From a virus: DNA of 48,158 nt. The position numbers and the translations under genes were made by a program. The DNA is taken from the IMG/VR virus record IMGVR_UViG_3300035698_013459, positions 1 to 48,158 of that record. The stretch is one strand, 5' to 3'. The notes beneath the pieces are model-generated. The model did no database searches. It worked only from the letters and a program-made list of their open reading frames with translations, and was not told the DNA's origin. How positions within the stretch are numbered: position 1 is the first letter of the stretch; every line of letters starts with the position of its first letter. Below, piece after piece: positions 1-34,618 of the stretch.

Positions 1-2681
1 AACGCCTTGGGGAAGGAAGTTATAAGCCTAAAGAGAATTTACAATTAGTTGAGAACACACGAGCTCTTGAATTGGCCAAGAAGCTGGACATAAAATACAT
101 ATGTAGCACCGACGCTCACATGCCAGAACTTGAAATGAAAACTGTCCAAAAAGTAAAAATGTGGAATAAATCAAAAAATTGGGAATTTGATTATATCTAC
201 TATTTACATGATTATAAAGAATTTAAGAAACAATGGATGGAAGAATACTTTCTCTCGGAGGAAATTTTTGAAGAGGGCTGTAAAAATACTATAGAGATAG
301 CTGATAAATGTCAAGATCTGGAATTGGAATTTAGTCATAAACTTCCTAAGATACAGTATGAGACCTATCCTGGGCATAAAAAGAACCAGACTAACACCGA
401 TCTTGTGGTTGAATTGGTCAAATATCACGATAAGGTAAATTTAAAAGACCCAGTGTATACTAATCGTTTAGTAAAAGAATTGAAGGTTTTGGGTGATAAT
501 GGCATAATTAATTTATTAGATTATTTTCTTTTATTGGAAGACGTCTGCCGTCATTGTAAAAAACAAAATATTAGATTGGGAGTAGCTCGTGGTTCAGCGG
601 GTGGCAGTCTTCTTGCTTATGCTCTTGATATTACTGACCTTAACCCTATTCTTCATGGTCTGTCTTTTGAACGTTTTATTAATCTCGCTCGTATTAAAAT
701 GGGTACATTTCCTGACATAGATTTAGATGTTGAAAGTGTGCGACGAGCTGAAGTAATCAAATATATGCAGGAGAAGTACGGTGTTGACAATGTGGCTCTG
801 TTTGGTACGATTCACACAATGAAAGTTAAATTAGCGTTAAGAGATACTATAAGGATACTAGATTCTACTTTACCACAAGAGAAGATTGATAGCATGGCCG
901 CTTCTATTCCGTGGATAGAATCAGAGAATAGCTCATTGGAAGAGATGGCCGAAATCCTTGATCAGTCTCCCGCCTTGAAAACATATTTTAAAAAGAGGCC
1001 AGACATACAGAAGGCTCTAATTTTGTCTTTGGGTCAGATGAGGCAATTTGGCGCTCATGCGGCTGCGGTTTGTATAAGTCCCACCCCAATCAATGAATTT
1101 GTGCCTTTGGCTAAAAAATCTAAAGATGAATTCTTTTATACTCAATATCCTATGGGGTATTGTGCTGAAGCTGGTTTGATTAAATATGATATTTTGGGTC
1201 TTAAGACCCTATCTGATATTGGTGGGTGTCTGGACATGGTATATGAAAGAACTAGCAAAAAGATTGATCCATGGAAAATACCATTAGATGATGAAGAGAC
1301 TCTGAGGGCTTTTAATAGGGGCAGAGACTATAATGCCACCATATTTCAGTTCAACACAGAAACTTTTAGCGATTTATTAACTGGTGTCAGGGGTGAAAAA
1401 CTGCATTTTAATGACTTAGTGGCTCTGAACACCTTGGGTCGTCCGGGAACTTATGACACAGGCATGCATTTAAAATGGATTGAGAGACGAAGGGGTGCAC
1501 CTCCTTCAGTTTTACATGCGGCCATGTGGCCTATCCTTAAAGACACTTTTGGGATTATTCTTTATCAGGAACAGGTCATGGCGATATTAAAATTAATGGC
1601 TGGATTTAATGACGAAGAAGCTGATGATATTAGAAGGGCCATTGGTAAGAAAAAAGTTAATTTGATTGATCATTATGGCAAAGTCTTTAGGGAAAGGGTG
1701 TCTACATACTACCCCGATGTTACTCCTAAGAAAGCTAATGATATTTGGGACAAAATTCAGTCGTTTGGTCGGTATAGTTTCAATAAGTCTCATTCAGTTG
1801 GGTATTCACAAATAGCATATGTCTGCCAGTATTTGAAGACACACTATGGATTAGAATGGTGGTGTTCTATTCTAAGAAACGAGACTGAGGATGATAAACG
1901 AAGGTCTTATTATCAGTTTATACGTAAGAAGATGGCTCCTTACGACATTAATCATTCAGATGATGCTTATTACATCAATAAAATCAATGGGAAGGAATTG
2001 ATTGTCCCCCCTATTAGCTCCATAAAATTTATTGGTAAAAAAATCATGGCGAAAATTCGTAAGCAGCGCCCCTTTAAATCTTTTGATCATTTTATGGGGT
2101 ATGCTTCTAAAGCTTCGGTTACCTTCAAAAAGAATGTAATTATGAACATGATTATTGGGGGGTTGTTTGGCTCTATAGAAGAGCGGACGGAGCTAGAATT
2201 GATCGAATGTTTTTATAAGACCTACCTTGGGGCTAAGATTAAAGCCAATGGGGAAGGTAATAGCAAATTTAAGGAATGGGAAGAGAATTATAAATGTATG
2301 ACTAACGACATATTGCAGCAAAAGAAGATGGAGCTTTTGCCCCATAATAATGTTGATCTTAATGATCTTCTCCCAGTAGAACATCAGGCTAAATACGATA
2401 ATTTTAGTGAGGCTTTGGCCAAGGGTGATCGGGACCCAGTTAGATTAATAGGTCTAGTCCTTGAGGTACATAATATTAAGACCAAGAGTGGGAAATCAAT
2501 GTTCTTTGCTACTATAGCTAATCAAGGGCTAAATATACCCTTAACCGTGTTCCCAAATTGTGCTACAAAATTTAGAGAGATTTTTCGTAAGGGAAAAATC
2601 GTTAGAGTTAATGGAAGAATAAATTTTTATGGTAGTAAGTATGGCATTGCCGTTGATGATGCGGCCGAATTTAAATCTTAA
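1..2681 (+). CDS. dnaE: DNA polymerase III alpha subunit-like (family C), 5' partial
   Basis: Replicative DNA polymerase of the bacterial DnaE type, expected to copy the phage genome. The frame is open to the left edge (first full codon at base 3), so the start and most of the PHP domain lie outside the window; the PHP tail with STDAHMP is at about 107-125. A GSAGGS loop (590-607) precedes the palm motif PDIDLDVE, whose Asp codons at 714 and 720 are the metal ligands. ILYQEQVM, RRAIGKKK and FNKSHSVGYS follow in the usual DnaE order, and the last 90 or so residues look like an OB fold. About 890 residues are visible, against roughly 1,050-1,160 in full DnaE. It ends 11 bases before the dNMP kinase and heads the rightward replication operon. 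Confidence 0.95.
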   Translation, partial: RLGEGSYKPKENLQLVENTRALELAKKLDIKYICSTDAHMPELEMKTVQKVKMWNKSKNWEFDYIYYLHDYKEFKKQWMEEYFLSEEIFEEGCKNTIEIADKCQDLELEFSHKLPKIQYETYPGHKKNQTNTDLVVELVKYHDKVNLKDPVYTNRLVKELKVLGDNGIINLLDYFLLLEDVCRHCKKQNIRLGVARGSAGGSLLAYALDITDLNPILHGLSFERFINLARIKMGTFPDIDLDVESVRRAEVIKYMQEKYGVDNVALFGTIHTMKVKLALRDTIRILDSTLPQEKIDSMAASIPWIESENSSLEEMAEILDQSPALKTYFKKRPDIQKALILSLGQMRQFGAHAAAVCISPTPINEFVPLAKKSKDEFFYTQYPMGYCAEAGLIKYDILGLKTLSDIGGCLDMVYERTSKKIDPWKIPLDDEETLRAFNRGRDYNATIFQFNTETFSDLLTGVRGEKLHFNDLVALNTLGRPGTYDTGMHLKWIERRRGAPPSVLHAAMWPILKDTFGIILYQEQVMAILKLMAGFNDEEADDIRRAIGKKKVNLIDHYGKVFRERVSTYYPDVTPKKANDIWDKIQSFGRYSFNKSHSVGYSQIAYVCQYLKTHYGLEWWCSILRNETEDDKRRSYYQFIRKKMAPYDINHSDDAYYINKINGKELIVPPISSIKFIGKKIMAKIRKQRPFKSFDHFMGYASKASVTFKKNVIMNMIIGGLFGSIEERTELELIECFYKTYLGAKIKANGEGNSKFKEWEENYKCMTNDILQQKKMELLPHNNVDLNDLLPVEHQAKYDNFSEALAKGDRDPVRLIGLVLEVHNIKTKSGKSMFFATIANQGLNIPLTVFPNCATKFREIFRKGKIVRVNGRINFYGSKYGIAVDDAAEFKS

Positions 2682-2692: not shown

Positions 2693-3514
2693 ATGACTAA
2701 AAAATTAGAAGATTCTACTGTTATTGTGGCTTTTATCGGGCCTAAAGGGTGTGGGAAGACCACAGCATGTAAACATCTAGGTGCTAAGAGTGATGGGACG
2801 ATATTGACCTTTGCTGCTGAATTAAAGAAACTGTGTAAGGAAGCTTTCCGTCTTTCTGATGATCAGGTTTATGGAACTCACAAAGATGTTGCCTTTGCTA
2901 AGCCCATGGTACTTACAGAGAGAGCAGTTAAAAGGGTTACGAAAGGCATGGATATCAAACTTCATGAGTTTAATCCAAGCCACAAATTTTCGTGGTCTAA
3001 AATAGCTGTTAATAAATTCCCCGTTAATGCTAAGACATTTAACAGCCCTAGAGAGATTATGCAGTATGTTGGAACAGAACTGATGCATTCACTTTACCTG
3101 CCATTTCACTGTGAAGTAATGGGTCCGAATATTACTGGAGCTGGTTATTATTTTGTAGATGATTTAAGATTTATGAACGAATATGAATATTTGAAGGAAT
3201 TGTGTCCTTCACTTAAGATTGTGTTGATCAAGGGACGCAAAGAAAAGAAAACAGGGAAAGAAGAGCATTCTTCAGAGGCTGAATGGAAAAAAATTGACAC
3301 AAATTATACTATTAATAATTCAAAAACGATAAAAGAATACAGAACTAATTCAGAAGAACTCTTTGATACTATAATAACAGATATCGAAAAAGACTATGCA
3401 GACAAACCAGACACTAAAAAAGTCATAAATAATATCTTAAAGGACGATCATGACCCTAAATTTGGAAAAAATAAAGTCAGAGTTGGTAAGTTTATATTCG
3501 AAGCGAAAGCGTAG
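2693..3514 (+). CDS. Deoxynucleoside monophosphate kinase-like P-loop protein
   Basis: Probably phosphorylates deoxynucleoside monophosphates to feed DNA synthesis, like T4 gene 1. The P-loop GPKGCGKT is at residues 16-23, and the following 'AAELKKLC' helix with a V-Y-G-T-x-K-D stretch is typical of phage dNMP kinases. Length 273 aa. The start has the ribosome site AAAGGAGA. In a phage that may use an unusual purine, this kinase could have to accept dZMP as well as normal dNMPs; that is inference. The 3' end overlaps the next gene by 65 bases. Confidence 0.75.
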   Translation: MTKKLEDSTVIVAFIGPKGCGKTTACKHLGAKSDGTILTFAAELKKLCKEAFRLSDDQVYGTHKDVAFAKPMVLTERAVKRVTKGMDIKLHEFNPSHKFSWSKIAVNKFPVNAKTFNSPREIMQYVGTELMHSLYLPFHCEVMGPNITGAGYYFVDDLRFMNEYEYLKELCPSLKIVLIKGRKEKKTGKEEHSSEAEWKKIDTNYTINNSKTIKEYRTNSEELFDTIITDIEKDYADKPDTKKVINNILKDDHDPKFGKNKVRVGKFIFEAKA

Positions 3515-10250: not shown

Positions 10251-10265
10251 TAAAGGGGCTTAGAC

Positions 10266-10934: not shown

Positions 10935-13900
10935 GTTAGATAATTTTTTCATAACTTTTTTTGGTGTTCATCTTGCAAAAGTCCCCTTGATGCCTGGCAA
11001 TAGCTGCCCGCTTGATTTTGCGTGGGATGTTTATAAAACTGCCTTAGCAAGGGTTCTTACTACTGACGATGTTACTAACTTTATGTCTATGGCAAATCGT
11101 GGTGGTCAGAAGTGCGCTCGTGGTGATACTATGGTGTCTACTAATTCTGGCATTAAACGTTTAGACGAATTCGTTGATAATGATTATATTTCTTCTTATC
11201 CTAGATCAGCTATTGGGACAGGCCTTGAATTTAATGGCATTAGGGAAATATGGCGTATAGACACCCATAATGGGTATTATTTCGAAGGCACTAACGACCA
11301 TTTGGTGTCTACTTATGATAATGGTGTGGTTTATAAAACTATAGAGAACATCACTAAAGATGACCATATTATGGTTGGTGGTAATAATGGTGATACCAAT
11401 TTTGCAGAATACAATAATTTTGATCTTGGTTATTTAGTTGGCGTGTTGATTGGAGATGGATGTTTAACTATAAAAGATAGTATCCAATTAGAAATCCAAG
11501 ATTTGGGAGTTTTAAATAAAACTAAAGACATCTTAAATAGGCAATATAATATCCACTTTAATTTAAAATTTAATAAGACCAATAATTGTTGGAGAGTTAG
11601 ATTCAAAAGGACTAATTTTAAAAAATGGTTATTGTCCATGGGACTGGAGGAGGTCACTGCGCCTCATAAAAAAATTCCTAAATGCGTCTGGGAAGGTAAT
11701 ACGGATATGCGTTCTGGGTTTTTATCTGGATATTTTGATACCGATGGTAGTTTAACTTGGGGTAGGGGGAGAGGCTCTCATTGTAGATTCCGGTGGGGCG
11801 TTGCTTCCGAACAACTTATGAAGGATTTACAAGTATTGTTAATAAATTATAAGATTAAGTCTCATCGGTCTCAAAGGAATTTTCAGGCCGCTAAAAATAA
11901 TAAGGCGAAACGTGGGAAAACTTATACTTCGTATAATCTGTGTATTAATGGCATATTCGCCCATAAATTATTATCTTTAATATCTTCATTTAGTACCAGA
12001 AAAACTAGGGTTAAGGCTTTTGCTAACGCCAATGGAGCTAATCCTGATACACTGAACGGTGATACTTTCCCTAAAGATAAAGTGTGGGGATTGGTTGAAG
12101 ACATAAGGAAACATTACCAAGACAATTATAGATTTGATGATAGGTATTATGTTAGGAACAAAGCCAACATTGGTGGTAAATATAAAACCATTACTAGAAG
12201 GAAATTAAAGAAATTTTTAGAAGTCTATGAGATGTGTGATGCTTGTGATTCTTATAAAGAACTTAAATTGCTCATAAAAAGTGGTTTTTTCTTAGAAGAA
12301 GTAAAGAAAGTACATAATATTGGTATTAAAGACAAGGTTTATGATTTAACTGTTCCTGATAATAAAAATTTTCTGGGTAACGGGATGGTAGTTCATAACA
12401 CCCTCACGTGTGCGTGCGTCATTTCTATTTTGTTGATGCATGACCTTTATAGAGATATTATTCACATGGCGTCTATTGCTGCGCAGGCCAATGTCCTTTT
12501 TGAAGTGTGGCTTAATAAATTTGCTGCCCGCCCTTATATGGAAGATGTGTTTACCAAGTTAACCATGCGCAAAACGGTGTCGCGTACTACGAAGATGTTG
12601 ACAGTAACTCATGGTACAATGGATGCTGTGAATGCTCATCATGGTGGAATTCTTATCCAGGATGAGGTTGATTTAACGGCTCCCAGAGTGTTTGGTGAAT
12701 CAAAGGGTATGCTTGTTGCTTCCCAGGGGCGAGTACCATTGAACGTTATGATTTCATCTCGTAAGTATGCAATGGGTAACATACAGACTATCTTAGATAA
12801 GATTGATGATGATCCGGAATTTTCTAAACGTATTAATGTGCATAGGTGGGGACAGTTAGAGACCACGAGGAAATGTGATGATGAGCGGTCTGGCGAATTC
12901 GGTGTAGAAATTATGGTCAACGAAGATGATCTTTTGGCCCTTCCTATCAAGGAATGGCAGGGTCTCTCGAAGACAGAGCAATCTAAATATCAGATGATAG
13001 AGGGTTATAGAAACTGTCTTGATTGTGGTATTTTTTCTTTCTGTCAAGGACTTCTAAAGAAGCAAGTAGAGAATGTTCATCTAACTCCGATTGATGTTAC
13101 AGTTGATAACTTTCGCAGAGAGAGCGCGGAATTTTTTAAGGCCCAACGTCTTAATCGTAAACCATCGACTAAGGGTCTTATATATGGTTCTTATGATTCA
13201 AAAGTACATGATAAGAGTGAACCGGAGATCGCGTTATTGTTGTCAGAGGCTGAAGAGACAGCCAAAAATACCACAACGTTGGCGGCTTTATTAGAATTAG
13301 TTGTTAAACTTAAATTACCATTATATATAGGAATGGATTTTGGATACAATGAAGCTGCAGCGGAATTAATAACCGTGGATAGACAGACTAGAGTGTATAT
13401 CCTAGATGAATTGGACATGCCAGGATTGTCCGATCGTGATTTGGGGATAGCAACCCATAATAGGTGGGGCACATATCCCATAAATTACATATTTCCAGAT
13501 TGGGAAAGTCCGGGTGGCATTAAGGAACTTAGGAAGGTATGGGAATCCACGTGTGGTGTCTGTACAAATGCAAACAAAGACGTTCAGTATGGCATTAACT
13601 TGGTTAGGAACAAGTTATATAAGCCAGGGACTAAAGAACCTCATCTGTTTGTAAATAAATACCGGTGCTCCATGCTTAGACATTCATTTAAGAATTATAG
13701 ATATAGGATTGATCCTAAGATTGATGAACCCGTAGATAAGATTTATAAAAGATGGGATCATGCAGCGGATGCTGTTAGATACGTGTTAGCGACTATTATG
13801 GGTTCACACCCGTTTAGTGTATCCTGGGGAACTGGTGAAGCGGTTAAGACAGAGAATATAAATGCTGTAGATGGTAAACCGTCTTTGATACATGCGCCTA

Positions 13901-14037
13901 CGGGTTCGGAGTTAATGCAATTTGCTGGCAAGGAAGCACGGGCCACTTGGACTGATTTTGAAAAACAGATGGAAGAGGCTAATAAGGAAGAAGAAGCCGA
14001 CAAAAAGGGCTTTTGGTTTCATCTTCCGAATGATTAA
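10861..14037 (+). CDS. Terminase large subunit, interrupted by an intein
   Basis: Packaging ATPase and nuclease. The start is ATG 10861, with AGAGGA about nine bases upstream; a TTG sits just before it. The primary product has about 1,058 residues; removing the 429-residue intein leaves about 629 residues, normal for TerL. The Walker A-like loop is ANRGGQKT, and the intein sits exactly between its Lys and Thr. Walker B is GGILIQDEVD at about 12649-12669. The nuclease domain has YIGMDFGY (about 13321) and DHAADAVRY (about 13756). A Cys-rich stretch (CLDCGIFSFC) at about 13018-13047 may bind metal. Confidence 0.92.
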   Translation: MVKTKKIDTTLIKRIRDLPCASKTELDNFFITFFGVHLAKVPLMPGNSCPLDFAWDVYKTALARVLTTDDVTNFMSMANRGGQKCARGDTMVSTNSGIKRLDEFVDNDYISSYPRSAIGTGLEFNGIREIWRIDTHNGYYFEGTNDHLVSTYDNGVVYKTIENITKDDHIMVGGNNGDTNFAEYNNFDLGYLVGVLIGDGCLTIKDSIQLEIQDLGVLNKTKDILNRQYNIHFNLKFNKTNNCWRVRFKRTNFKKWLLSMGLEEVTAPHKKIPKCVWEGNTDMRSGFLSGYFDTDGSLTWGRGRGSHCRFRWGVASEQLMKDLQVLLINYKIKSHRSQRNFQAAKNNKAKRGKTYTSYNLCINGIFAHKLLSLISSFSTRKTRVKAFANANGANPDTLNGDTFPKDKVWGLVEDIRKHYQDNYRFDDRYYVRNKANIGGKYKTITRRKLKKFLEVYEMCDACDSYKELKLLIKSGFFLEEVKKVHNIGIKDKVYDLTVPDNKNFLGNGMVVHNTLTCACVISILLMHDLYRDIIHMASIAAQANVLFEVWLNKFAARPYMEDVFTKLTMRKTVSRTTKMLTVTHGTMDAVNAHHGGILIQDEVDLTAPRVFGESKGMLVASQGRVPLNVMISSRKYAMGNIQTILDKIDDDPEFSKRINVHRWGQLETTRKCDDERSGEFGVEIMVNEDDLLALPIKEWQGLSKTEQSKYQMIEGYRNCLDCGIFSFCQGLLKKQVENVHLTPIDVTVDNFRRESAEFFKAQRLNRKPSTKGLIYGSYDSKVHDKSEPEIALLLSEAEETAKNTTTLAALLELVVKLKLPLYIGMDFGYNEAAAELITVDRQTRVYILDELDMPGLSDRDLGIATHNRWGTYPINYIFPDWESPGGIKELRKVWESTCGVCTNANKDVQYGINLVRNKLYKPGTKEPHLFVNKYRCSMLRHSFKNYRYRIDPKIDEPVDKIYKRWDHAADAVRYVLATIMGSHPFSVSWGTGEAVKTENINAVDGKPSLIHAPTGSELMQFAGKEARATWTDFEKQMEEANKEEEADKKGFWFHLPND
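11113..12399 (+). other. Intein with LAGLIDADG homing endonuclease in TerL
   Basis: Self-splicing protein insert of 429 residues. It begins with Cys (CARGDTMV), has the B-block-like 'GTNDHLVST' and ends with 'NGMVVHN' before extein Thr, so the terminal His-Asn and the +1 Thr nucleophile are present. Two dodecapeptides typical of LAGLIDADG endonucleases are visible: YLVGVLIGDG (11431-11460) and FLSGYFDTDG (11718-11747), so it probably cuts intein-free terminase genes. Insertion in the ATP-binding loop means no active terminase is made until splicing occurs. Confidence 0.92.
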
Positions 14038-19744: not shown

Positions 19745-20416
19745 ATGGAAGACAAATTTTTAGACAGATTATATCGACTTCGTTTATTAAAGAGATTTTC
19801 AATCAGGGCAGTTAATACACAGACTTCACCGGCTGAGCATTCTTGGTATGTCGCCGTCTTGGCCCTTTACATAGCCAAGAGGTACAATGCTAGCGACCTT
19901 TCTGAAAAAGATCAGCTTTATGATATTTCTTCTTTGTTAACTAAAGCCATGCTGCATGATGCCCCAGAGGTTATCACTTCGGACATTGTCCATTTTATCA
20001 AGCATTTTAATCCTGCTACAGAGCGAGTAATGGTGGAGATTGAGAATGAAGCCATTGATAATTCTTTGTTGGGTGATATGGATTCTTCCATCAAACCATT
20101 TTTTGAATATAATATCAAAAATGCAAAGGATGACACTCTAGAGGGTAAATTAGTTAGTTTGTGTGATTTATTAGAAATTGGCTATTATACTGTTAACGAG
20201 CGTACGGTTGGTAATATACAAAAATGGGTGGACGAGGTTTTTAAGGGAATTTGCGATTTGGTAGAGAGTCAAGTCGAAGCTTATCATCCTGTACTACAAG
20301 AGATCATTGGAGAATTAATATCGCACCTTAAACATCAATTTGGCTCCATAAATTTGCCAAGCAACAGTGACCTAATAGGGATGAGCTATGATAAAAAAGC
20401 TGCTAAAAAATCTTAG
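19745..20416 (+). CDS. YfbR-family HD nucleotidase (DatZ-like candidate)
   Basis: HD phosphohydrolase of the YfbR/OxsA family, which removes phosphates from deoxynucleotides. Metal ligands: His32 in AEHSW, His71-Asp72 in LHDAPEVITSD, and Asp141 in LVSLCDLLE; the N-terminal LYRLRLLKRF matches YfbR. Length 223 aa, slightly longer than YfbR. In phages with 2-aminoadenine DNA, DatZ of this family destroys dATP so adenine is not used. A PurZ-type gene 3 kb downstream supports that role here, but dATP specificity cannot be read from sequence. It has its own promoter. Confidence 0.82.
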   Translation: MEDKFLDRLYRLRLLKRFSIRAVNTQTSPAEHSWYVAVLALYIAKRYNASDLSEKDQLYDISSLLTKAMLHDAPEVITSDIVHFIKHFNPATERVMVEIENEAIDNSLLGDMDSSIKPFFEYNIKNAKDDTLEGKLVSLCDLLEIGYYTVNERTVGNIQKWVDEVFKGICDLVESQVEAYHPVLQEIIGELISHLKHQFGSINLPSNSDLIGMSYDKKAAKKS

Positions 20417-20807
20417 CTTTAACGCCGGAGAGAAAATAGATACCTCAGCCTTAGAACAGTTAAAACTGTCTAACGAAGACTTATTGAAACACGTACTGGA
20501 AATGAAGACGTCGATGGATAAGACTAAGACCGCTTCCGAAGTGAATCATGCTAAAAAGATTGAAGAGATGAACGCCATCAAGTTTTTGGTTGAGCAATTT
20601 ACAGGTTTGATGAATTATAATGTAGCTCAATCACAGGCCATATTGAATTTACACAGAAAATTGGTACAGGTTGATGCATTCGTTAAAGAAGTCATGGTGA
20701 CCTTGGATTTATCTATAGAGGAAGAAGAAGAATTACAACTTTTATTGGAAAAATACCAACTGTTAGAAGATGCCCGCACAGGGGACGCAACGTTGAGCTA
20801 TCAATGA
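20388..20807 (+). CDS. Hypothetical coiled-coil protein
   Basis: A 139-aa, largely helical product with probable coiled coil over residues 20-75 and an acidic stretch (SIEEEEELQLLLEK) near the end. Not recognised. It overlaps the HD nucleotidase by 29 bases and the next gene by 4 bases (ATGA). Confidence 0.65.
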   Translation: MIKKLLKNLSFNAGEKIDTSALEQLKLSNEDLLKHVLEMKTSMDKTKTASEVNHAKKIEEMNAIKFLVEQFTGLMNYNVAQSQAILNLHRKLVQVDAFVKEVMVTLDLSIEEEEELQLLLEKYQLLEDARTGDATLSYQ

Positions 20808-21409
20808 AAAAGTGGAGAAATTGGAAATATAAGCAGAGAAACAAAGTGGACATAACGGCCCGTTATTGGTGGTGTTATGCCAGAGAACAACGGGCATTGG
20901 CTGAAGTTTGTCAAAATCGGGTAGCCAATGGCGTCTGTTTGAAGTATAAGCGCTGCGATTATTTTAATCAGTGGAGGGAATTTATGGGTGACCAATTCGA
21001 AATAGCTTTAAATAAACTTATTAAAGAAGTTGAAGTAAATACAAAAGAGCCTGAACCTGAAAAACTTCCTTGTATGAAGACTCATAAAGAGAAGGTGGTT
21101 GAGAAAAAAAAAGTAATAGAAGAAAAATATCCTTCTAAGCATAGAAAATCTTTGTCTACTTATGTGCGTGAACATCCTGATATTGACATTTCTCAACTTG
21201 TAATGATGATCAGGATGGCAATTTCTAAAGGTACAGTAGAATCGCCTAACGATTTGCGCACTGCTCGTTTAAAGAAAACGATAAGGTATTATCGTTATAG
21301 GGATAGGAAAAATGTTAAAAAAACTAAAGAACCGTCTATCCAGAAGACTGAAGTGCCTTCTGGGGAGGCATCACTTGATAAACCATTATCGGGAGATTCA
21401 TCAGAGTAA
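20804..21409 (+). CDS. Hypothetical basic protein
   Basis: A 201-aa, Lys/Arg-rich protein. Cysteines at residues about 24, 37, 46 and 52 in the first 55 residues could bind a metal. The middle (EPEPEKLPC ... VVEKKKVIEEKY) is charged and probably disordered, and the tail is low in complexity. Its function is unknown. Confidence 0.6.
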   Translation: MKKWRNWKYKQRNKVDITARYWWCYAREQRALAEVCQNRVANGVCLKYKRCDYFNQWREFMGDQFEIALNKLIKEVEVNTKEPEPEKLPCMKTHKEKVVEKKKVIEEKYPSKHRKSLSTYVREHPDIDISQLVMMIRMAISKGTVESPNDLRTARLKKTIRYYRYRDRKNVKKTKEPSIQKTEVPSGEASLDKPLSGDSSE

Positions 21410-21542
21410 ATGGGAACACGTAGGATTAGTGTGCCCCTATTGTAATTTAGAGATAGGATTTGATAATGAGCCAGAAAAAATGCCCCAAATGCGGGGCGAA
21501 TTTTGTTCCTTCGAAGTTCAAACCGAGCCAGAAATATTGTAG
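21312..21542 (+). CDS. Small zinc-binding protein overlapping neighbours
   Basis: A 76-aa frame starting at ATG 21312 after ATAGGAAAA. A basic N-terminus (KKLKNRLSRRLKCLLGRHH) is followed by REIHQSKWEHVGLVC and PYC, giving Cys/His pairs for one zinc. It overlaps the preceding gene by 98 bases and the next by 77. The segment from residue 14 to 50 looks truly coding; the last 25 residues may be neutral overlap. Confidence 0.45.
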   Translation: MLKKLKNRLSRRLKCLLGRHHLINHYREIHQSKWEHVGLVCPYCNLEIGFDNEPEKMPQMRGEFCSFEVQTEPEIL

Positions 21543-23019
21543 TCCTCATTGTGCTAAGACAGATTATATGAGTGAGTATAATAAAACTGGTGCTCGCAGG
21601 AGGGCCGTACTTTCAAAAGAGAAATGTCTATGTTGCGGTACAGAAACTAACAAGATGACTACAAACAAAGAGTGGGGGAGGATCTGCTCTTCGTGTGCTT
21701 TAAAACTTAAGAATGGGACCCCAATTCAAAGTGAATTATTTAGTCCTAGCGGTGGTCAATATCGTGGTAGAGATTGGTGGATCGGAAGACAGATAGGCAA
21801 ATTCAAAGTAGTGGACATCCCGATAGATCCTTTGTGTGATGGAGCGTACGTAGAAACTGAAATAACCATAGAATGCCCATTAAAGCATCAATTCAAGAGG
21901 AGGGCTAGTTATGTTGGTTCTATTTGTCCGACATGTGCAGACATAGCAGACAAAAACAAAAGAAACTTTAAAAAAGCGATATTGCCGGCCCACGCTGGTT
22001 TTGACGAGTGGGCGACAATTTTATATAATAACACAGGTATAAAACTCATTGATGCTTCAGAAAATGGATGGTACACAAATCACCGGATGAAAGTGCAATG
22101 TAAATGTTGGTGCGGGAGATTATGGGAACCTAACTGGACTGACATAGTGAGAAAGCGGATTGTGTCGTGCGGGTGTATTAGCAAATCTTCACAGGCTAAT
22201 GAGGAGATTTATCAGTATGTTACAGTAGACATGGGTCTAAAAGCATATAAGGAGCATCCAATCGACAGTATGCAGATCGACGTCTACGTGCAGGACAAGG
22301 GATTGGCGATAGAGCACAATGGTCTGAGATGGCACCATGAAAGGCAAGATCTTAAAAAATATAACTTGTGTGGACGTAATGGTCTGGAATATTTTGCTTT
22401 TTATGAAGATGAATGGCTGTGGAAAAAGAAATTGTGCAAAAGATTTTTAAAACGTAAGTTGGGCAAGCTTCCGCCCTTATATAGTAATGAAACCCAGTCG
22501 GCTTCTAGAATAAATTTCACCCAACTTCCACCAGACGATGAGGTTAAGGATTTTCTAAAGAAGCATAGTTTGAAAACCATCAATGAACTTTCTAATGCTA
22601 AGACCATTGGCGCAAACGTTGCTGGCTATTTCGGTGATCGTATGGTTTGTGTTATAGGTTTAGATTTTGGTAAGTATCCTGCGGTAGCGGCGATACCGTC
22701 AACAGTTGATTATATGGTAGAGGATCTATACTTCGACATCCCAGACCTTTGGAAGACTGCTTGGGAATGGATTCATTATTATCTTGGTGTACGACACTCA
22801 GTTGGTTACACGGAAAATCGTTTGGGGATTGATAATAAATTTAAAGAGGCTGGTTTTGTACTGGATAAGGAAATAGAACCAGATTATTTTTGGATAAAAG
22901 GTCAAAGAAGATATCCTAAAGAACGAGAACCAGAGGATAAAATTAATTGGCATCGCCTTTTTGATTGTGGTCAGAAGAAATGGGTAAATAAGGTTAACAA
23001 TGACAAAGGAAAGGTATAA
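21466..23019 (+). CDS. Vsr-type (EDxHD) free-standing endonuclease, Hef-like
   Basis: Predicted homing-type DNA endonuclease. Several zinc ribbons occupy the N-terminus (CPKCG/CSPHC, CLCCG/CSSC). A Vsr-like nuclease core follows: MQIDVYVQDKGLAIEHNG then RWHHE at about residues 265-290 (acidic residues and His of the EDxHD type). The C-terminal 'GYTENRLG ... FKEAGFVL ... PDYFWIKGQRR' module is shared with phage Hef-like enzymes. The start at ATG 21466 is preferred over TTG 21460. Such genes spread by cutting related phage genomes and are often inserted beside important genes. Confidence 0.75.
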   Translation: MSQKKCPKCGANFVPSKFKPSQKYCSPHCAKTDYMSEYNKTGARRRAVLSKEKCLCCGTETNKMTTNKEWGRICSSCALKLKNGTPIQSELFSPSGGQYRGRDWWIGRQIGKFKVVDIPIDPLCDGAYVETEITIECPLKHQFKRRASYVGSICPTCADIADKNKRNFKKAILPAHAGFDEWATILYNNTGIKLIDASENGWYTNHRMKVQCKCWCGRLWEPNWTDIVRKRIVSCGCISKSSQANEEIYQYVTVDMGLKAYKEHPIDSMQIDVYVQDKGLAIEHNGLRWHHERQDLKKYNLCGRNGLEYFAFYEDEWLWKKKLCKRFLKRKLGKLPPLYSNETQSASRINFTQLPPDDEVKDFLKKHSLKTINELSNAKTIGANVAGYFGDRMVCVIGLDFGKYPAVAAIPSTVDYMVEDLYFDIPDLWKTAWEWIHYYLGVRHSVGYTENRLGIDNKFKEAGFVLDKEIEPDYFWIKGQRRYPKEREPEDKINWHRLFDCGQKKWVNKVNNDKGKV

Positions 23020-23027
23020 ATTAAGTT

Positions 23028-23234
23028 ATGACTCAATGGGTTTCAAGAATTGTAGGACCGAAAGAGGTTGGTACGACTCTTAATGATTTGACAACAGAAG
23101 GCTGGCATTGTTGGCCTCAATGTATACAAGTAATACAAAATATGGACTTGGTTCTTATAGTAGGTAGCCAAGAGGACTTTATGGATTTATATAATAACCC
23201 ACAGGAGGAAGACGATGAAACAAGGCAAGTTTAA
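23028..23234 (+). CDS. Hypothetical small protein, DUF4177-like
   Basis: A 68-aa protein with the pattern 'TTLNDLTTEGWHCWPQC ... DLVLIVG', similar to small DUF4177-type proteins (short beta-alpha-beta with L..L..xGW). It overlaps the start of the purZ-like gene by 20 bases, so they are probably translated together. Confidence 0.6.
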   Translation: MTQWVSRIVGPKEVGTTLNDLTTEGWHCWPQCIQVIQNMDLVLIVGSQEDFMDLYNNPQEEDDETRQV

Positions 23235-24357
23235 TATTCTATTAGATGGATTTCATGGGAGTTCTGGTAAAGGTAAGATGAGTACATATTTGGCACAAAA
23301 GTGGGGAGTGCGAGGTATGTGTTCAACTAATATGCCCAATGCTGGTCACACCGCGATCATTGGGGGTCACAAATTTATAGCCAAGATTTTACCCACCGCT
23401 GCCATCTTGAATAAGGTTCACAAAGAACTGCAGCCTCTTATTTACATAGGCCCCACGGCGGCCTTTACTATTGACCAATTTATGAAAGAAATGGATGAAT
23501 GCGAGCTGTCTTCTGACCAAGTCATTATTCATCCGCGTGCTGGCGTGATCACCCCCGCCCATAAAGAGTTAGAACAAACAGATTTAAATGGACCAAAATC
23601 TATAGCATCGACATGCCAAGGAGCGGGGACATTCTTGGCAGACAAGATACTGCGTCGTCCAAACCTTCTATTGGCGAAGGATTACCCAGATTTGAATAAG
23701 TACGTTTGCGGTGTAGAGGATTTTCCTCGTATGATTAATGCCCTTATGCAGGACATTAATGTGACTATGCTTCATGAAGTTAGCCAAGGGATCGGCCTTG
23801 ATATAAATCATGGTAGTCATTATCCTAATTGTACGTCTCGCAGCACTAATTCATTACAGGCCATCGCTGATATGGGAGTTCATCTTAAAAATGTTGGCGA
23901 CATCTATTTGAATATCCACGCAACTCCAATTAGAGTAGGAAACATCATAGAAGACGGGAAGCGAGTGGGATACTCAGGAGACTTTTACCCAGACGCTAAG
24001 GAGTTGACGTGGCAAGAAGTTGGAGAAAAGGCAGGAATGCCCCAAGAAGACATCGACGGACTATTTTCTACACAGTTGACCACCGTTACTAAACGTTTGC
24101 GTCGAGTATTTGGATTTTCTTGGATCGGGCTTCGCCATGCCGTGCAAATTTCATCAGCCTCCAAAATTGTTCTTAACTTTGCCCAATATATCGATTGGAA
24201 GGCACTGGGGATGCGGGGAGAAGGCAAAGCTGCTTTTGAACGCTTGCCTCCAGCTGTTAAAGATTTTGTAAAAGAGATTGAGACAGTGACCCACCTACCG
24301 GTGGTTCTTATCGGTACTGGGCCAGACAATGATGATATCATTGATTTAGAAATCTAG
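23215..24357 (+). CDS. purZ: PurZ-type 2-aminoadenylosuccinate synthase (PurA family)
   Basis: Adenylosuccinate-synthetase fold. PurZ joins aspartate to dGMP, the first step to dZMP (2-aminoadenine nucleotide). The P-loop region is GFHGSSGKGK; Ser16 replaces the catalytic Asp of PurA (GDEGKGK), the change linked to use of dGMP instead of IMP. NAGHT (42-46) keeps the catalytic His; EVSQGIGLDINHG and the STGPD-like TGPDNDD near the C-terminus match PurA. Length 380 aa, shorter than the bacterial enzyme (about 430), as in archaeal and phage forms. GGAGGAAGAC precedes ATG 23215. It ends 4 bases into the convergent sigma gene. Confidence 0.85.
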   Translation: MKQGKFNILLDGFHGSSGKGKMSTYLAQKWGVRGMCSTNMPNAGHTAIIGGHKFIAKILPTAAILNKVHKELQPLIYIGPTAAFTIDQFMKEMDECELSSDQVIIHPRAGVITPAHKELEQTDLNGPKSIASTCQGAGTFLADKILRRPNLLLAKDYPDLNKYVCGVEDFPRMINALMQDINVTMLHEVSQGIGLDINHGSHYPNCTSRSTNSLQAIADMGVHLKNVGDIYLNIHATPIRVGNIIEDGKRVGYSGDFYPDAKELTWQEVGEKAGMPQEDIDGLFSTQLTTVTKRLRRVFGFSWIGLRHAVQISSASKIVLNFAQYIDWKALGMRGEGKAAFERLPPAVKDFVKEIETVTHLPVVLIGTGPDNDDIIDLEI

Positions 24358-25577
24358 GAATTTTCCCAAGCTCTTTTTAAAGGATTGAGGGTCTTTATAG
24401 GGTTATTATTAATGGCCTTCAATTTCTTTATACCTTTACTGTAATGGTCGTAGGTGCGCTTTTTGCTGATTTTGCCATTACCGCTCACATCTCCAAGTTC
24501 CCCAATGTCTTTAAATGCAGGTTCTTCACCTTCTTCTACAGGGATAATAATGGGACAATTGAAAGGCATAAGGCCGTAACGTAGTCTTATGACCTTTTCT
24601 TGTCTTGGGGTTAATTCTTTGAAAGCCGTTTCTAACAGTCCTCTTATACTTGCGGTGTCCAGGTTTTGCATGATCTGTGCTTCTTGATCGTGAGGGTCTG
24701 GCAAGGAATTTATAAATGAGGTGTCGTCTTCACCATCAAAATGATTATTGTCATTAATGATATACAGGCTTTGTTCTGCCATGGTTTTGGCTTTAAGTGC
24801 TTTTTCTAACGACCATCCCAATTTTTCTCTTACCTTTTCTTCTAGGGGCACTTGTTTTGTTTCTTCGGTTAAGGAGGTTATGGTTTTATTAAATTGATTT
24901 ACCATGTTGTTTATATAGATAGGTACTCTAATAGTCTTTGATTTGTTGGCTATTGCCCTTGATGCGTAGAGTTTGATCCAATGCATGGCCATGGTGGTGA
25001 ATTTTGTGTCTCGTCTATAGTCATATTTATCTATTGCTGTTATTAATCCTAAATTCCCTTCTTGTATCAGATCTGTGAAGTCCACGCCTTTGTTTGTGTA
25101 TTCCTTAATTACTTTAACTACAAGTCGTAGGTTAGCTGTTGCCATCATGTTTCTAGAGTGTAGATAGGCAGTGGCGTCCTTATGATAACCACAATGTTTT
25201 AAGGTGTCTAATAAAACGTCTGATTTAAATTTGAAGTGATAAAGTGTATTAAACCTTTTAGTGTGGTTCTTTGTGAGACTCAATTTTAATATGTATGCCT
25301 TGAATTGTATTCTGGCGGCGTGCATTGATATTGATTTGATTTGTTCGTCTGGGTTAGAACTGTCGCAATCACACACCATCAATGCTAGGGATTCTTCATT
25401 TTCTATAATCTTTATACATCGGTTTTCTAGATACTTAACAGCTTTGTCAGATTGTGATATTTTATGTAGAATCTGGTCTTTTGTTTCTTCAAAATCTGCA
25501 GTGATTTGATGAATGTCCTTAATATCCATTTTAGGCACTGAATTAAAATATGCTTGTATTGCTGGATCTCTGGTCAT
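24354..25577 (-). CDS. Sigma-70 family RNA polymerase sigma factor
   Basis: Directs host RNA polymerase to phage promoters. Region 2 is canonical: NLRLVVKVIKEYTNKG, then DLIQEGNLGLITAIDKYDY and FTTMAMHWI, followed by a region 3-like part. Region 4 begins ELTPRQEKVIRLRYGL but has an insert of about 15-20 residues (PFNCPIIIPVEEGEEP) before the helix-turn-helix 'FKDIGELG'. The N-terminal 130 residues replace region 1. Length 407 aa. It converges on purZ with 4 bases of overlap and is preceded by two small leftward genes. Confidence 0.9.
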   Translation of the reverse strand: MTRDPAIQAYFNSVPKMDIKDIHQITADFEETKDQILHKISQSDKAVKYLENRCIKIIENEESLALMVCDCDSSNPDEQIKSISMHAARIQFKAYILKLSLTKNHTKRFNTLYHFKFKSDVLLDTLKHCGYHKDATAYLHSRNMMATANLRLVVKVIKEYTNKGVDFTDLIQEGNLGLITAIDKYDYRRDTKFTTMAMHWIKLYASRAIANKSKTIRVPIYINNMVNQFNKTITSLTEETKQVPLEEKVREKLGWSLEKALKAKTMAEQSLYIINDNNHFDGEDDTSFINSLPDPHDQEAQIMQNLDTASIRGLLETAFKELTPRQEKVIRLRYGLMPFNCPIIIPVEEGEEPAFKDIGELGDVSGNGKISKKRTYDHYSKGIKKLKAINNNPIKTLNPLKRAWENS

Positions 25578-25611
25578 AGGACCCCCCCCTAATTTTTGTT
25601 GGATGATTAGC

Positions 25612-25926
25612 TTACTTATCTACTAGCTTTGCGTACTTTTCTTTTTCTTCATCCGTGCAAAAATAGGGACCTATGATCTTTTCGAAATCTCCTGTGGTGA
25701 GCTTGACGATGATAGTTGCGCCGCCAAACCCCATTTGATTATCTTTGAAGTGTACAAAGCTTTGATCATTACTCAAGTAAAGCGTCGTATTTTCATCAAC
25801 GACGGTTTTATTGAACAACTCCCCCGACGGAGTATTCAGTTCCTTGGTCTTAACTTTTAGTTCTTCTTTGTGTTTGTGTTCCCCTATAGCCTCTGTGACT
25901 TTTTTGGGTTTCTTCCTGCCCGTCAT
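25612..25926 (-). CDS. Hypothetical protein
   Basis: A 104-aa protein with a basic, Lys-rich first 30 residues, then a beta-rich part (TTLYLSNDQSFVHFKDNQMG ends near residue 70). Not recognised. It lies between the sigma factor and the MazG-like gene, 34 bases upstream of sigma, probably in one transcript. Confidence 0.65.
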   Translation of the reverse strand: MTGRKKPKKVTEAIGEHKHKEELKVKTKELNTPSGELFNKTVVDENTTLYLSNDQSFVHFKDNQMGFGGATIIVKLTTGDFEKIIGPYFCTDEEKEKYAKLVDK

Positions 25927-25946
25927 GTCCTACCCCCATTCTGTTA

Positions 25947-26303
25947 TTAGAATTTCTTGCCATGTTTATAAGGACGACCGCGATTAAACTCCATCTTTTG
26001 TAATAAAGCCTGAGGCCACACGCCCTTGTAATGTTCCTCAGCATAAGCCAAAATCCTAACTACAATATCAACAACTTCTTCAAGTTCGTTGCTAATGTCG
26101 TCTTTACGCACCGCTTCGGCCCACTCGCCGACTTCGCTCATAAATGCCACAAGTTGTGGAAGTTTCTCATGGAGCGGGAAACCGTGGTCTATGGCGTTAG
26201 AATGGCACTCTGTGGCTATGTTTAAGAGATTGGGGTCATTCTGAAGGCGTGCTGTTGTGAATTTACTAGTTGGGGTGTTTGCGTCGTATTTAAAATCGGA
26301 CAT
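25947..26303 (-). CDS. MazG-like nucleotide pyrophosphohydrolase (MazZ-like candidate)
   Basis: All-alpha NTP pyrophosphohydrolase. The metal-binding pattern ExxE (Glu57, Glu60 in SEVGEWAEA) and ExxD (Glu76, Asp79 in ELEEVVDIVV) is intact, and the C-terminal KMEFNRGRPYKHGKK is the substrate-side motif of single-domain MazG proteins. Length 118 aa. In 2-aminoadenine phages, MazZ of this superfamily converts dGTP to dGMP, the substrate of PurZ. The presence of PurZ 1.6 kb away makes that role likely, though specificity is inferred. A promoter lies upstream. Confidence 0.85.
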   Translation of the reverse strand: MSDFKYDANTPTSKFTTARLQNDPNLLNIATECHSNAIDHGFPLHEKLPQLVAFMSEVGEWAEAVRKDDISNELEEVVDIVVRILAYAEEHYKGVWPQALLQKMEFNRGRPYKHGKKF

Positions 26304-31193: not shown

Positions 31194-31234
31194 GGTAAAT
31201 CCCCAAGCCCAAACTAGGCTTGGAGGAGTTTACC
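31194..31234 (-). terminator. Intergenic two-part hairpin
   Basis: GGTAAA/TTTACC and CCAAGCC/GGCTTGG form a near-perfect stem around the stop codon of the VWA gene. It may separate expression of the MoxR/VWA pair from genes further left. Confidence 0.45.
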
Positions 31235-32419
31235 AAATGGGGGTTTGTTTATACCGCTGTTACCTGCCGAGGTATTCATCCATACAACTTTATAAGGTGG
31301 TTTCTCTCGTGGAAAGTCTATGTACATGTCACTGAAATAGATGAGCATGTTTGGTCTAAATTTGTTATCTTCTACCCATTTAAAGACTGGTATTGAGCTT
31401 GTTCCACCGCGTCCGCGCAGGGTAATTTCTTTTTTAACTCGACCGATAGTTGAAACGTCCGATATTTCAGCATCACATTGGAGGAGTTTGCCGTCGTAGC
31501 CCATCCTCTTTATCCATCTAACTACACTATAAACTTGTTCAAGTTCAGGGTCTGACATTGATCCTGATGTATCTACAGCAATCACAAACTTGGGTCCGTA
31601 CATATCTCTGCTTCCTGAATAGAGTGGGAATCGTTTGTTTCTTCTTCGCCAATAAGTCGCTTCTTGTACGCTAGCCGAGATTTCTTTCCCGATCACCCTC
31701 TTGAGCAGCTTGCCCAATTCTCTGTGCTTCTTCCATCTGGCAAGAATTTTGTTTGCCATGTCTCCGCCGATATTGCCTTTGTTTTTGGCGGTCTCTATGG
31801 CGTTTTCCACTTTCCCCTTCCACACTTCTTCAACATCTGGGCTTGATTCGTCCCACTTGGCGTGACTATCGAAAGTGGTTCCTTGGTCCTTCTCGTCTTT
31901 TTCACCCTTATCCTTGCCCTTGCCTTGCCCGTTATTTTCTTTGTCATTTTCGTCTTTACCTTTACCATAACCACCACCACTCATACTCACTTTGATTGCG
32001 TTGTCCATGAGGTGTTTGTAGTAGTATTCTCTACTTTCTGAACGTGGCAAGTTCAGTTTGTCATAGGTAACTGCCAATTCTTTGAGGCTGTTTGGTACGG
32101 CTGCGTACGGTGATTGGTTGATCTCAGCGTCTGCTCCTATGTTTGATGCTTCATGGTTGGGTAGTCTATAGAATACATGAGCTAGAATGACGTGGTAAAG
32201 CTCATGTTTCATTAAGAATCTTATTCCTTCTTTGTCTAGACCGTCGATAAATTTCGGGTTGTAGTAAATTTTGATGTAATTATGGTCCATCGAGACCCCT
32301 GCCGTTGGGCATTTGGGGTCTTCAATGAATTTAATAAAATCAGCGAATTCCTGCAAAAGTGGCTCTGAAAAGACAAGCCAAACTAGCGTGTCTTCTAGCC
32401 TTTTCCTTGTTTCGTCCAT
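31214..32419 (-). CDS. VWA-like metallopeptidase (MoxR partner)
   Basis: A 401-aa protein of the 'putative metallopeptidase / VWA-like' type. The N-terminal domain has LMKHELYHVILAH, an HExxH zinc site. A low-complexity Gly/Lys/Asp/Glu linker follows (about residues 148-180). The C-terminal domain has a MIDAS-like VDTSGSMSD near residue 295 plus a later D-containing YFSDMYID. It sits 11 bases after the AAA ATPase gene, so the two are probably made and used together to remodel a target protein. Confidence 0.85.
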   Translation of the reverse strand: MDETRKRLEDTLVWLVFSEPLLQEFADFIKFIEDPKCPTAGVSMDHNYIKIYYNPKFIDGLDKEGIRFLMKHELYHVILAHVFYRLPNHEASNIGADAEINQSPYAAVPNSLKELAVTYDKLNLPRSESREYYYKHLMDNAIKVSMSGGGYGKGKDENDKENNGQGKGKDKGEKDEKDQGTTFDSHAKWDESSPDVEEVWKGKVENAIETAKNKGNIGGDMANKILARWKKHRELGKLLKRVIGKEISASVQEATYWRRRNKRFPLYSGSRDMYGPKFVIAVDTSGSMSDPELEQVYSVVRWIKRMGYDGKLLQCDAEISDVSTIGRVKKEITLRGRGGTSSIPVFKWVEDNKFRPNMLIYFSDMYIDFPREKPPYKVVWMNTSAGNSGINKPPFGKLLQA

Positions 32420-32430
32420 TGTCTTCCTCC

Positions 32431-33438
32431 TTAGTTAATGACTTCGAGAATCTCTCTTACCATTTCAGCAAACTGTTTGTTTTGTCTGCTCAAACTTTTA
32501 TTGATGCAATTCAGATTTCTCATGACGTACCCGACTGAGGATTTGCCAAATCGTAAAATTTGATCTGTTAAGTCCGAACTTTTAATCTTATTTCCTGCAG
32601 ATAGGAAACTTTCAAGACGGAGCAACAGAATCCTTTTTCTTAGTGGTTCCATCTCTTCTATATTGTAGGTGGTTGGTGTGGCGAAGAATTCTTTAGCCTG
32701 TGGAATTTCTCTCAGGATAGATTTGTTCTTCCAAGTTGCCACTCCATGTGATCCTACACAAGCATTGACAAGCTCAAGGGCCGAGTCTTCATCCAGTTCA
32801 TCAATAATGGGTAACACAGTACCCAGTTGTCTTAGCCCTCTTGGTGTCATTTCTTTACTTGGTAACTTGTAATTGCCGTTCACTTTGAGATGCGACTCGC
32901 CAAGCACCGCAAGTTCAGCAATTCTTGGGTCTGCGTCTGATCGAGCAAAATAACTTGACACTTCATCAACGCTGTTATCTACCTTGACGAAGAGGCATCT
33001 GTCTACAACCGCTTTGTCCATTTCTGTGACGCTGTAATCTTCGGTATCTGGGTTCATCGCTCCAATCACCACGGTGTGTGATAAATCATAGTTGGCCAGC
33101 ATTTTTTGGTCCAGAATTTGCATAATTGAATCCATTAGGACGGGTTTGCACCTGTTCAATTCATCAAGGAACAGCACACCTCCGTCTTTCAATCTTTCAA
33201 ACATTTCTACTTTGGAGAATTTTGTCACTCCATCTTCGATTTCTGGCAAGCCTAATAAATCCCCTGGGGAATCTAAACTACCCACCCTAATGAGTTCTAA
33301 GTGGAGTCCTGCTTTTTCACACGCATCTATCACCGTCTGCGTCTTGCCAATCCCCGCTGACCCTGTCATGATTAATGGCGGCAATTTGTTGCTTTGTATC
33401 CACATGTCTAATACTTTGCGTGTTTCTGTTACTTTCAT
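32431..33438 (-). CDS. MoxR-family AAA+ ATPase
   Basis: A chaperone-like ATPase of 335 aa. Walker A GSAGIGKT is at residues 26-33, Walker B GGVLFLDELNR near 90, sensor-like VIGAMNPD near 128, and an arginine-finger region VVDRCLFVKV near 150. MoxR proteins act with VWA partners to insert metals or remodel complexes; the VWA gene follows immediately. Such pairs are rare in phages outside large genomes, and the substrate is unknown. It starts in the GGAGGAAGACATG context. Confidence 0.88.
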   Translation of the reverse strand: MKVTETRKVLDMWIQSNKLPPLIMTGSAGIGKTQTVIDACEKAGLHLELIRVGSLDSPGDLLGLPEIEDGVTKFSKVEMFERLKDGGVLFLDELNRCKPVLMDSIMQILDQKMLANYDLSHTVVIGAMNPDTEDYSVTEMDKAVVDRCLFVKVDNSVDEVSSYFARSDADPRIAELAVLGESHLKVNGNYKLPSKEMTPRGLRQLGTVLPIIDELDEDSALELVNACVGSHGVATWKNKSILREIPQAKEFFATPTTYNIEEMEPLRKRILLLRLESFLSAGNKIKSSDLTDQILRFGKSSVGYVMRNLNCINKSLSRQNKQFAEMVREILEVIN

Positions 33439-33535
33439 GTCTTCCTCCTTGGTTGGCGTAATCGCCGATTGTTAGTGTGTTTTTTGTCCCCCCTGCTCTA
33501 TCTGCTCTCCCATGGGGTTATAAAGCAAGCCCTAA

Positions 33536-34051
33536 TTAAAACGGATAATTTCTAGAAGCTGTTGGTGACTCCGATTTCGTCTTATTTTGCGCTTTAATCA
33601 TGTTTCTGTGGTATTCAAAGATGTCGTCTAAATCTGAGGTTAAAGTGGCGTTAGTGTCTAAGACTGCGTTGCTGCGCATTGATAAGCGAGTCGTGATTGT
33701 GGAGTTGTCTCCAATTCGTGTTAGTGTGCATTCTACTGTCATTTCCATAGATCTGTTATAATCTTCGGGTTTTTCTGAATAATTGACTTCTACTGTCATT
33801 GTCCATTCTCCTTTTCTTGGTTCGAATGTCAACGCCGACGCTACGATTTTAGAGGGCACTGGATTGTTTGGCATGATTTTATCCCAAACTGTCAGAACGT
33901 TTTCTTTATTGTCTGTTCCCTTTACAAAAGCGTCTACAATATTTCTAGCCATGTCTTTTGTACAAGTTGGTTTATCTTCCATTTTCTTTTCTCCTTTAAA
34001 GATTGACACAAGGTCATCGATTGTTGTAATTACTTGGATGTTCGATATCAT
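33536..34051 (-). CDS. Hypothetical protein
   Basis: A 171-aa protein starting at ATG 34051, which overlaps the upstream stop as ATGA; an in-frame ATG at 33982 with GGAG upstream is an alternative start. The centre is beta-rich (EWTMTVEVNYSEKPE ... MEMTVECTLTRIG). Not recognised. Confidence 0.6.
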   Translation of the reverse strand: MISNIQVITTIDDLVSIFKGEKKMEDKPTCTKDMARNIVDAFVKGTDNKENVLTVWDKIMPNNPVPSKIVASALTFEPRKGEWTMTVEVNYSEKPEDYNRSMEMTVECTLTRIGDNSTITTRLSMRSNAVLDTNATLTSDLDDIFEYHRNMIKAQNKTKSESPTASRNYPF

Positions 34052-34554: not shown

Positions 34555-34581
34555 TGTCTTCCTCCTTTGTGATTTCGCGCT

Positions 34582-34618
34582 CATTTTACCACAAGCGCGC
34601 TGTTTTGCAAAATCAATC
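34582..34618 (-). promoter_or_regulatory. Leftward promoter cassette, copy C
   Basis: Minus-strand GATTGATTTTGCAA, then 16 bases after TTGCAA the sequence TAAAAT within TGTGGTAAAATGA. The leader to the ribosome site is only about 20 bases. The upstream gene ends at the TGA within it. Confidence 0.6.

What the first reader, a model, noticed from the sequence alone, without database searches (positions are those of the whole stretch)
19745..26303. Probable 2-aminoadenine (Z) genome pathway: PurZ, DatZ-like and MazZ-like genes
Three enzyme types needed to replace adenine by 2-aminoadenine occur within 6.6 kb: a PurA-family protein with the PurZ-type Asp-to-Ser change (23215), a YfbR-family HD nucleotidase (19745) and a single-domain MazG protein (25947, other strand). 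Established knowledge: PurZ converts dGMP toward dZMP, DatZ removes dATP and MazZ makes dGMP from dGTP in Z phages such as S-2L. Inference: this phage makes Z-DNA. The genes are separated and on two strands, unlike the compact clusters I recall, which suggests independent assembly of the pathway.
Basis: partly seen in the sequence, partly recalled or inferred. Interest (0 to 1): 0.92.

Follow-up and report, generated by a model that had tools for sequence, protein, structure and literature searches.

The report
PurZ phage with unusual partner enzymes
This fragment of an uncultured virus of bacteria carries a real gene for making 2-aminoadenine ("Z"), the base some viruses put in their DNA instead of adenine, but the genes around it differ from those of known Z viruses, and close relatives of the gene occur in viruses with genomes up to about 436,000 bases long.

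Summary
In detail: a PurA-family gene with Ser at the PurA Asp13 position (23215-24357), a YfbR-like HD gene (19745-20416) and a small MazG gene (25947-26303, minus strand). The PurA-family protein is a true PurZ by tree (100/99), active-site residues and AlphaFold model. It falls in a 22-member subclade (100/99), related to the S-2L/phiVC8 lineage, in which I found no cultured phage; eight members lie on contigs over 200 kb. The partner genes are not the known ones. The HD protein lacks three residues called strictly conserved in DatZ (Q29, G74, K116), resembles bacterial Lin2634, and is missing from its expected place in the closest relative. The MazG protein keeps the metal-binding residues but not MazZ-1's guanine contacts, has no BLAST match to MazZ-1 or MazZ-2, yet is 61-63% conserved, like PurZ. 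The fragment encodes a DnaE-type Pol III alpha and a dNMP kinase; no DpoZ was found. Best reading: the phage makes dZTP, probably puts Z in its DNA, and adjusts nucleotide pools with independently acquired enzymes. Only the PurZ assignment is firmly supported; Z in the DNA is untested. In passing: PurZ genes in Clostridia/Bacilli chromosomes, some fused to a Nudix domain.

The parts
23215..24357 (+). PurZ, 2-amino-deoxyadenylosuccinate synthetase; Ser16 (P-loop GSSGKGK, about 23257-23277) replaces PurA Asp13
   Evidence: tree; residues; AlphaFold pLDDT 94.5; Foldseek top hits P. horikoshii PurA and phiVC8 PurZ
19745..20416 (+). YfbR-like HD phosphohydrolase, candidate dATPase (DatZ-like but lacks Q29, G74, K116)
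25947..26303 (-). single-domain MazG-type NTP pyrophosphohydrolase, candidate dGTPase; not MazZ-1 or MazZ-2 by BLAST
72..2681 (+). DnaE-type DNA polymerase III alpha (N-terminus cut by the end of the contig), with PDIDLD motif
2693..3514 (+). deoxynucleoside monophosphate kinase, candidate dZMP/dGMP kinase
   Evidence: searches (PF21448 E 5e-7; PHROG 139 E 3e-26), conserved in G007 and G008
21460..23019 (+). HNH/homing-type endonuclease just upstream of PurZ; homologues lie near PurZ in seven other loci
24354..25577 (-). sigma-70-like factor between PurZ and the MazG gene, convergent with PurZ

Best explanation
The window is a fragment of an uncultured tailed phage that makes dZTP and probably replaces some or all of its adenine by 2-aminoadenine. 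Shown by sequence: the 23215-24357 product is a PurZ with the features linked to dGMP use (Ser in place of Asp13, the C204 equivalent) and an ATP-type energy pocket (N305, F306, Q308). Inferred: PurZ joins dGMP and aspartate using ATP (or dATP); host PurB releases dZMP; the phage dNMP kinase and host kinases make dZTP; the MazG protein supplies dGMP from dGTP; the HD protein removes dATP; the phage DnaE-type Pol III alpha copies DNA from the altered pool. Lacking an identified Z-selective polymerase, specificity would have to come mainly from the pool, as proposed for S-2L. The helpers appear to have been recruited separately from those of the S-2L and phiVC8 lineages.
For: PurZ tree: PurZ proper 100/99, apart from PurZ0 and PurA; window + G007 + G008 100/100; 22-row subclade 100/99. 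Residues: S23, S131, C204, T273, N305, F306 and Q308 of S-2L PurZ all kept, versus D, T, V, G, T, K, D in E. coli PurA (roles from PMC8342488). AlphaFold pLDDT 94.5, pTM 0.93; Foldseek top hits are P. horikoshii PurA 5k7x and phiVC8 PurZ 6fm1. PurZ (62/57%) and the MazG protein (61/63%) are among the best conserved genes shared with G007/G008, where most shared genes are at 30-50%. HD metal ligands and R19, K81, I22 are kept. A dNMP kinase lies directly after Pol III. Precedent for a non-selective polymerase with pool control: S-2L PrimPol plus DatZ (PMC8065100).
Against: No chemistry was measured. The HD protein lacks Q29, G74 and K116 and is missing from the matching place in G007, the relative with the most similar PurZ. 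The MazG base-contact residues differ from MazZ-1. No DpoZ/PolA was found, and C-family polymerase use of dZTP is unknown to me. Only a fragment was seen.
Confidence: 0.62

Rival explanations
1. The phage makes dZMP/dZTP but its DNA is only partly substituted, or Z is used transiently (for example to resist cleavage of incoming DNA), because Pol III alpha does not discriminate and the dATP-removing enzyme is optional.
For: No DpoZ found; HD gene absent from its expected place in G007; the S-2L cluster alone gave only partial substitution in E. coli (PMC8342488).
Against: PurZ's ATP/dATP-type pocket could itself lower dATP; PurZ and MazG are strongly conserved; G007 is itself a fragment.
Confidence: 0.2
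2. Only PurZ belongs to a Z pathway; the HD and MazG genes are ordinary phage nucleotide housekeeping genes that lie nearby by chance.
For: HD resembles Listeria Lin2634 and lacks DatZ residues; PHROG 3301 is in only 7 of 46 PurZ records and similar MazG proteins also occur in haloviruses.
Against: MazG conservation matches that of PurZ in all three genomes; jumbo relatives G018, G019 and G022 also carry an HD gene directly next to a MazG-like gene, suggesting a recurring pair.
Confidence: 0.35
3. The PurZ-like enzyme acts as an ordinary PurA (IMP to adenylosuccinate) to raise host AMP.
For: Same fold and superfamily; the 735-kb phage LR756501 does carry a true PurA, GDEGKGK.
Against: The Asp needed by PurA is Ser; T131S, V204C and G273T changes and an ATP-type pocket are as in PurZ; the tree excludes PurA.
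Confidence: 0.05

Closest known systems
PurZ of Vibrio phage phiVC8 (DgsS, PDB 6FM1) and cyanophage S-2L (7ODX)
   Same: Ser at the PurA Asp13 position, C204, V241, TTVT loop, N-F ATP-pocket residues; related lineage in the tree
   Different: 29-32% identity; A instead of G130; genes not clustered; no neighbouring DpoZ or PrimPol found
PurZ of Bacillus phage vB_BpsS-140
   Same: Closest isolate match (37.8%); Ser kept; the record also has DnaE Pol III alpha and no PolA, YfbR-like or PHROG 3301 hit
   Different: Outside the window's 22-row subclade; T273 is Ala; no HD/MazG pair found with these models
DatZ of S-2L and related Z phages
   Same: YfbR-like HD family; metal ligands, R19, I22 and K81 kept
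   Different: Q29, G74, K116, W20 and P79 replaced; tree placement undecided
MazZ-1 / DUF550 (S-2L, PMBT28, SH-Ab 15497)
   Same: MazG-type metal motif, K76, N80, R83
   Different: D60 to A, I56 to V, W15 to A, W85 to Y, K31 to A; no BLAST match
PurZ0 system (Archimedes, Wayne, Ghobes)
   Same: Z synthesis with its own set of pool enzymes, including DmtZ
   Different: PurZ0 is a separate clade; no DutZ or DmtZ identified in the window, though a nucleoside deoxyribosyltransferase-like gene is near PurZ in relatives of another subgroup

Membership tests
PurZ (2-amino-deoxyadenylosuccinate synthetase) | Ser replaces the catalytic Asp13 of PurA | tested here: met
   GSSGKGK; Ser invariant in alignment
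PurZ (2-amino-deoxyadenylosuccinate synthetase) | Groups with PurZ, apart from PurA and PurZ0 | tested here: met
   100/99 support, 58-row tree
PurZ (2-amino-deoxyadenylosuccinate synthetase) | ATP-type pocket and PurZ-specific substrate contacts | tested here: met
   N305, F306, Q308, C204, T273 equivalents present
PurZ (2-amino-deoxyadenylosuccinate synthetase) | Converts dGMP + Asp to dSMP | not testable with these tools
   Needs enzyme assay
DatZ | HD metal ligands and R19, K81 | tested here: met
   H34, H66, D67, E70, D119, R19, K81 equivalents
DatZ | Strictly conserved Q29, G74 and K116 (PMC8065100) | tested here: not met
   T, S and S in the window
DatZ | Placement in the DatZ clade | tested here: inconclusive
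   Free tree leaves it out (84/94); joining not rejected, p-AU 0.32
MazZ-1 | Four acidic metal-binding residues | tested here: met
   E35, E38, E50, D53 equivalents
MazZ-1 | I56 and D60, kept by all MazZ-1 (guanine contacts) | tested here: not met
   V and A
MazZ-2 | Sequence homology to phiVC8-type MazZ-2 | tested here: not met
   phiVC8, ZP6 and OH MazZ-2 queries give no window hit at E 1e-3
Z-cluster (datZ-mazZ-purZ) | mazZ between adjacent datZ and purZ | tested here: not met
   Genes at 19745, 23215 and 25947, the last on the other strand
Z-containing DNA phage | 2-aminoadenine in virion DNA | not testable with these tools
   Needs mass spectrometry
DpoZ-type replication | Family A polymerase selective for Z | tested here: not met
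   No PolA hit in the window; DnaE Pol III alpha present; fragment only

The most novel reading that the evidence does not exclude
Z-DNA is made by a large, uncultured branch of phages, including ones with genomes of 200-436 kb, in part copied by C-family (DnaE-type) polymerases and supported by dNTP-pool enzymes recruited independently of DatZ, MazZ-1, MazZ-2 and DutZ; the window is a small-contig member of this branch.
Probability: 0.45. Interest if true: 0.78.

Novelty: new variant of a known kind. Interest (0 to 1): 0.62.

Why it matters
Studied Z phages copy their DNA with DpoZ (family A) or, in S-2L, a PrimPol, and are small. A well-supported PurZ branch that includes very large phages, many with DnaE-type polymerases, would show that the Z base is more widespread and its support enzymes more interchangeable than described. 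It makes a specific question testable: can a C-family replicase copy Z-DNA, and is pool control alone enough? Bacillus phage BpsS-140, an isolate with PurZ and DnaE, offers an immediate laboratory test.

Tried and rejected
Close relatives of the window HD and MazG proteins were sought in IMG/VR by peptide seeds: none. AlphaFold of the MazG protein with three sequences gave pLDDT 45.9 and was not used. PF12917 and PHROG 3301 were searched across 46 PurZ-bearing records to test co-occurrence: found in only 7 each, so no general PurZ-DatZ-MazG linkage. PolA proteins of the large phages were compared with DpoZ: for the jumbo ones only 20-25% identity, so DpoZ status is not supported. The 735-kb phage LR756501 looked like a PurZ hit but is a true PurA with Asp. 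The literature library held no paper naming BpsS-140, and the searches I made for PurZ with jumbo phages found nothing describing it. The true-PurA reading was rejected by tree and residues.

Full report
WHAT IS THERE. The window is a linear 48,158-bp IMG/VR virus fragment of 39.6% GC. It also carries phage genes: portal, an intein-bearing terminase, RuvC-like, RecA/UvsX-like and SbcC-like proteins, a dNMP kinase and a sigma-70-like factor, and at its left end a DnaE-type DNA polymerase III alpha with the PDIDLD motif, cut by the contig end.

PURZ. The 380-aa protein has GSSGKGK where PurA has GDEGKGK. Its best family is PHROG 1211 (E 2e-45) and its best PDB match by sequence is phiVC8 PurZ (E 7e-39). 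Mapped on S-2L PurZ, it keeps S23, S131, C204, V241, T273-T276, N305, F306 and Q308, whereas E. coli PurA has D, T, V, V, G-A-T-T, T, K and D at these places (residue roles from PMC8342488). The N/F/Q set predicts ATP rather than GTP as donor. The AlphaFold model (pLDDT 94.5) matches P. horikoshii PurA and phiVC8 PurZ best. This is the best supported part of the finding.

A NEW BRANCH. In a 58-row tree the window groups with G007 and G008 (100/100) inside a 22-row subclade (100/99) of uncultured viral contigs. Its sister in that tree is the lineage of S-2L, phiVC8 and relatives (98/96 for the two together; 80/57 for the sister lineage itself, which is weak). Eight members of the subclade lie on contigs of 228-436 kb. 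The nearest isolate in 50,697 phage records is Bacillus phage vB_BpsS-140 at 37.8%, which falls outside the subclade. Viral identity of these contigs rests on IMG/VR; a PF03237 terminase was found in 8 of the 33 records tested.

RELATIVES WITH THE SAME GENE ORDER. G007 (56 kb) and G008 (39 kb) share most of the window's left half. PurZ (62% and 57%) and the MazG protein (61% and 63%) are among the most conserved genes; most others are at 30-50%. The HD gene is present in G008 (39%) but missing from the matching place in G007. PurZ is on the opposite strand in both relatives, beside an HNH endonuclease; HNH homologues lie near PurZ in eight loci in all, which suggests, without proving, that PurZ moves with them.

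THE HD GENE. It keeps all metal ligands and R19, I22 and K81 of S-2L DatZ, but has T, S and S for Q29, G74 and K116, which PMC8065100 reports as strictly conserved in DatZ. Its best PDB match is Listeria Lin2634. A small tree leaves it outside DatZ (84/94), but joining it is not rejected (p-AU 0.32). It may still act on dATP; membership in DatZ is not supported.

THE MAZG GENE. It keeps the four metal-binding acids, K76, N80 and R83, but the guanine contacts I56 and D60 of MazZ-1 are V and A. None of the known MazZ proteins used as queries hits it. Its fold could not be modelled. Its strong conservation alongside PurZ is the main reason to link it to the pathway.

POLYMERASE. No family A polymerase was found in the window, while DnaE-type Pol III alpha occurs in 21 of 46 PurZ-bearing records, including window, G007, G008 and BpsS-140. 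The PolA proteins of the jumbo members are only 20-25% identical to DpoZ. If DNA of these phages contains Z, selection must rest on the nucleotide pool or on a polymerase feature not yet known. S-2L is a precedent for pool control (PMC8065100).

OTHER HELPERS. The window encodes a dNMP kinase right after Pol III, a candidate for the dZMP step. In jumbo members G018, G019 and G022 an HD gene is directly followed by a MazG-like gene, far from PurZ. In 11 loci of the DnaE-bearing subgroup a nucleoside deoxyribosyltransferase-like gene lies near PurZ, recalling DmtZ of PurZ0 phages (PMC12884076). These fit the functional convergence described there.

VERDICT. PurZ: high confidence. Z in the DNA: likely, untested. 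DatZ and MazZ names: not supported as memberships, plausible as functions.

Noticed in passing
L029-L060, L064 (PurZ at about 10001-11190 of most): PurZ proteins 38-54% identical to the window's occur on viral contigs up to 436 kb; eight of the 22 tree members exceed 200 kb.
   Followed up: partly
L029:8177-8572 and 10 more loci (L030-L033, L035, L036, L041, L044, L045, L057): Nucleoside deoxyribosyltransferase-like gene (PF05014 in L029) near PurZ, reminiscent of DmtZ.
   Followed up: partly
L144, L145, L146 (G018, G019, G022): HD (YfbR-like) gene directly followed by a MazG-like gene in 362-436 kb phages, roughly 190-230 kb from PurZ.
   Followed up: partly
L103, L104, L105, L108, L111, L122, L128: In Clostridia/Bacilli/Tenericutes MAGs a Nudix-like domain (by sequence inspection) is fused upstream of a Ser-type PurZ.
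   Followed up: partly
L115, L117, L103, L128: PurZ genes in what look like chromosomal housekeeping neighbourhoods (recA, glycolysis genes, thrS/nth by sequence inspection), not prophages; a Nudix-like gene is fused or near in each; patchy, 4 of 114 genomes of one order.
   Followed up: partly
G046, G047, G050, G051, G052: These MAGs showed only PurZ-type hits and no canonical PurA with PF00709; incomplete assemblies may explain it.
   Followed up: no
L182 (LR756501, 735 kb): Huge phage with a true PurA (GDEGKGK), not PurZ.
   Followed up: yes
window 10858-14037: Terminase large subunit interrupted by an intein with LAGLIDADG domain; relatives G007 and G008 have about 630-aa versions.
   Followed up: no
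window 42115-43499: tRNA-Met, tRNA-Glu and an RtcB RNA ligase next to each other.
   Followed up: no
window 31214-33438: AAA ATPase and VWA/DUF2201 pair, 53-62% conserved in G007 and G008, about as high as PurZ.
   Followed up: no
G007 33331-34582 and G008 24500-25716: Sugar-nucleotidyltransferase-like and cupin-like genes between HNH and sigma factor, absent at that place in the window (by sequence inspection).
   Followed up: no
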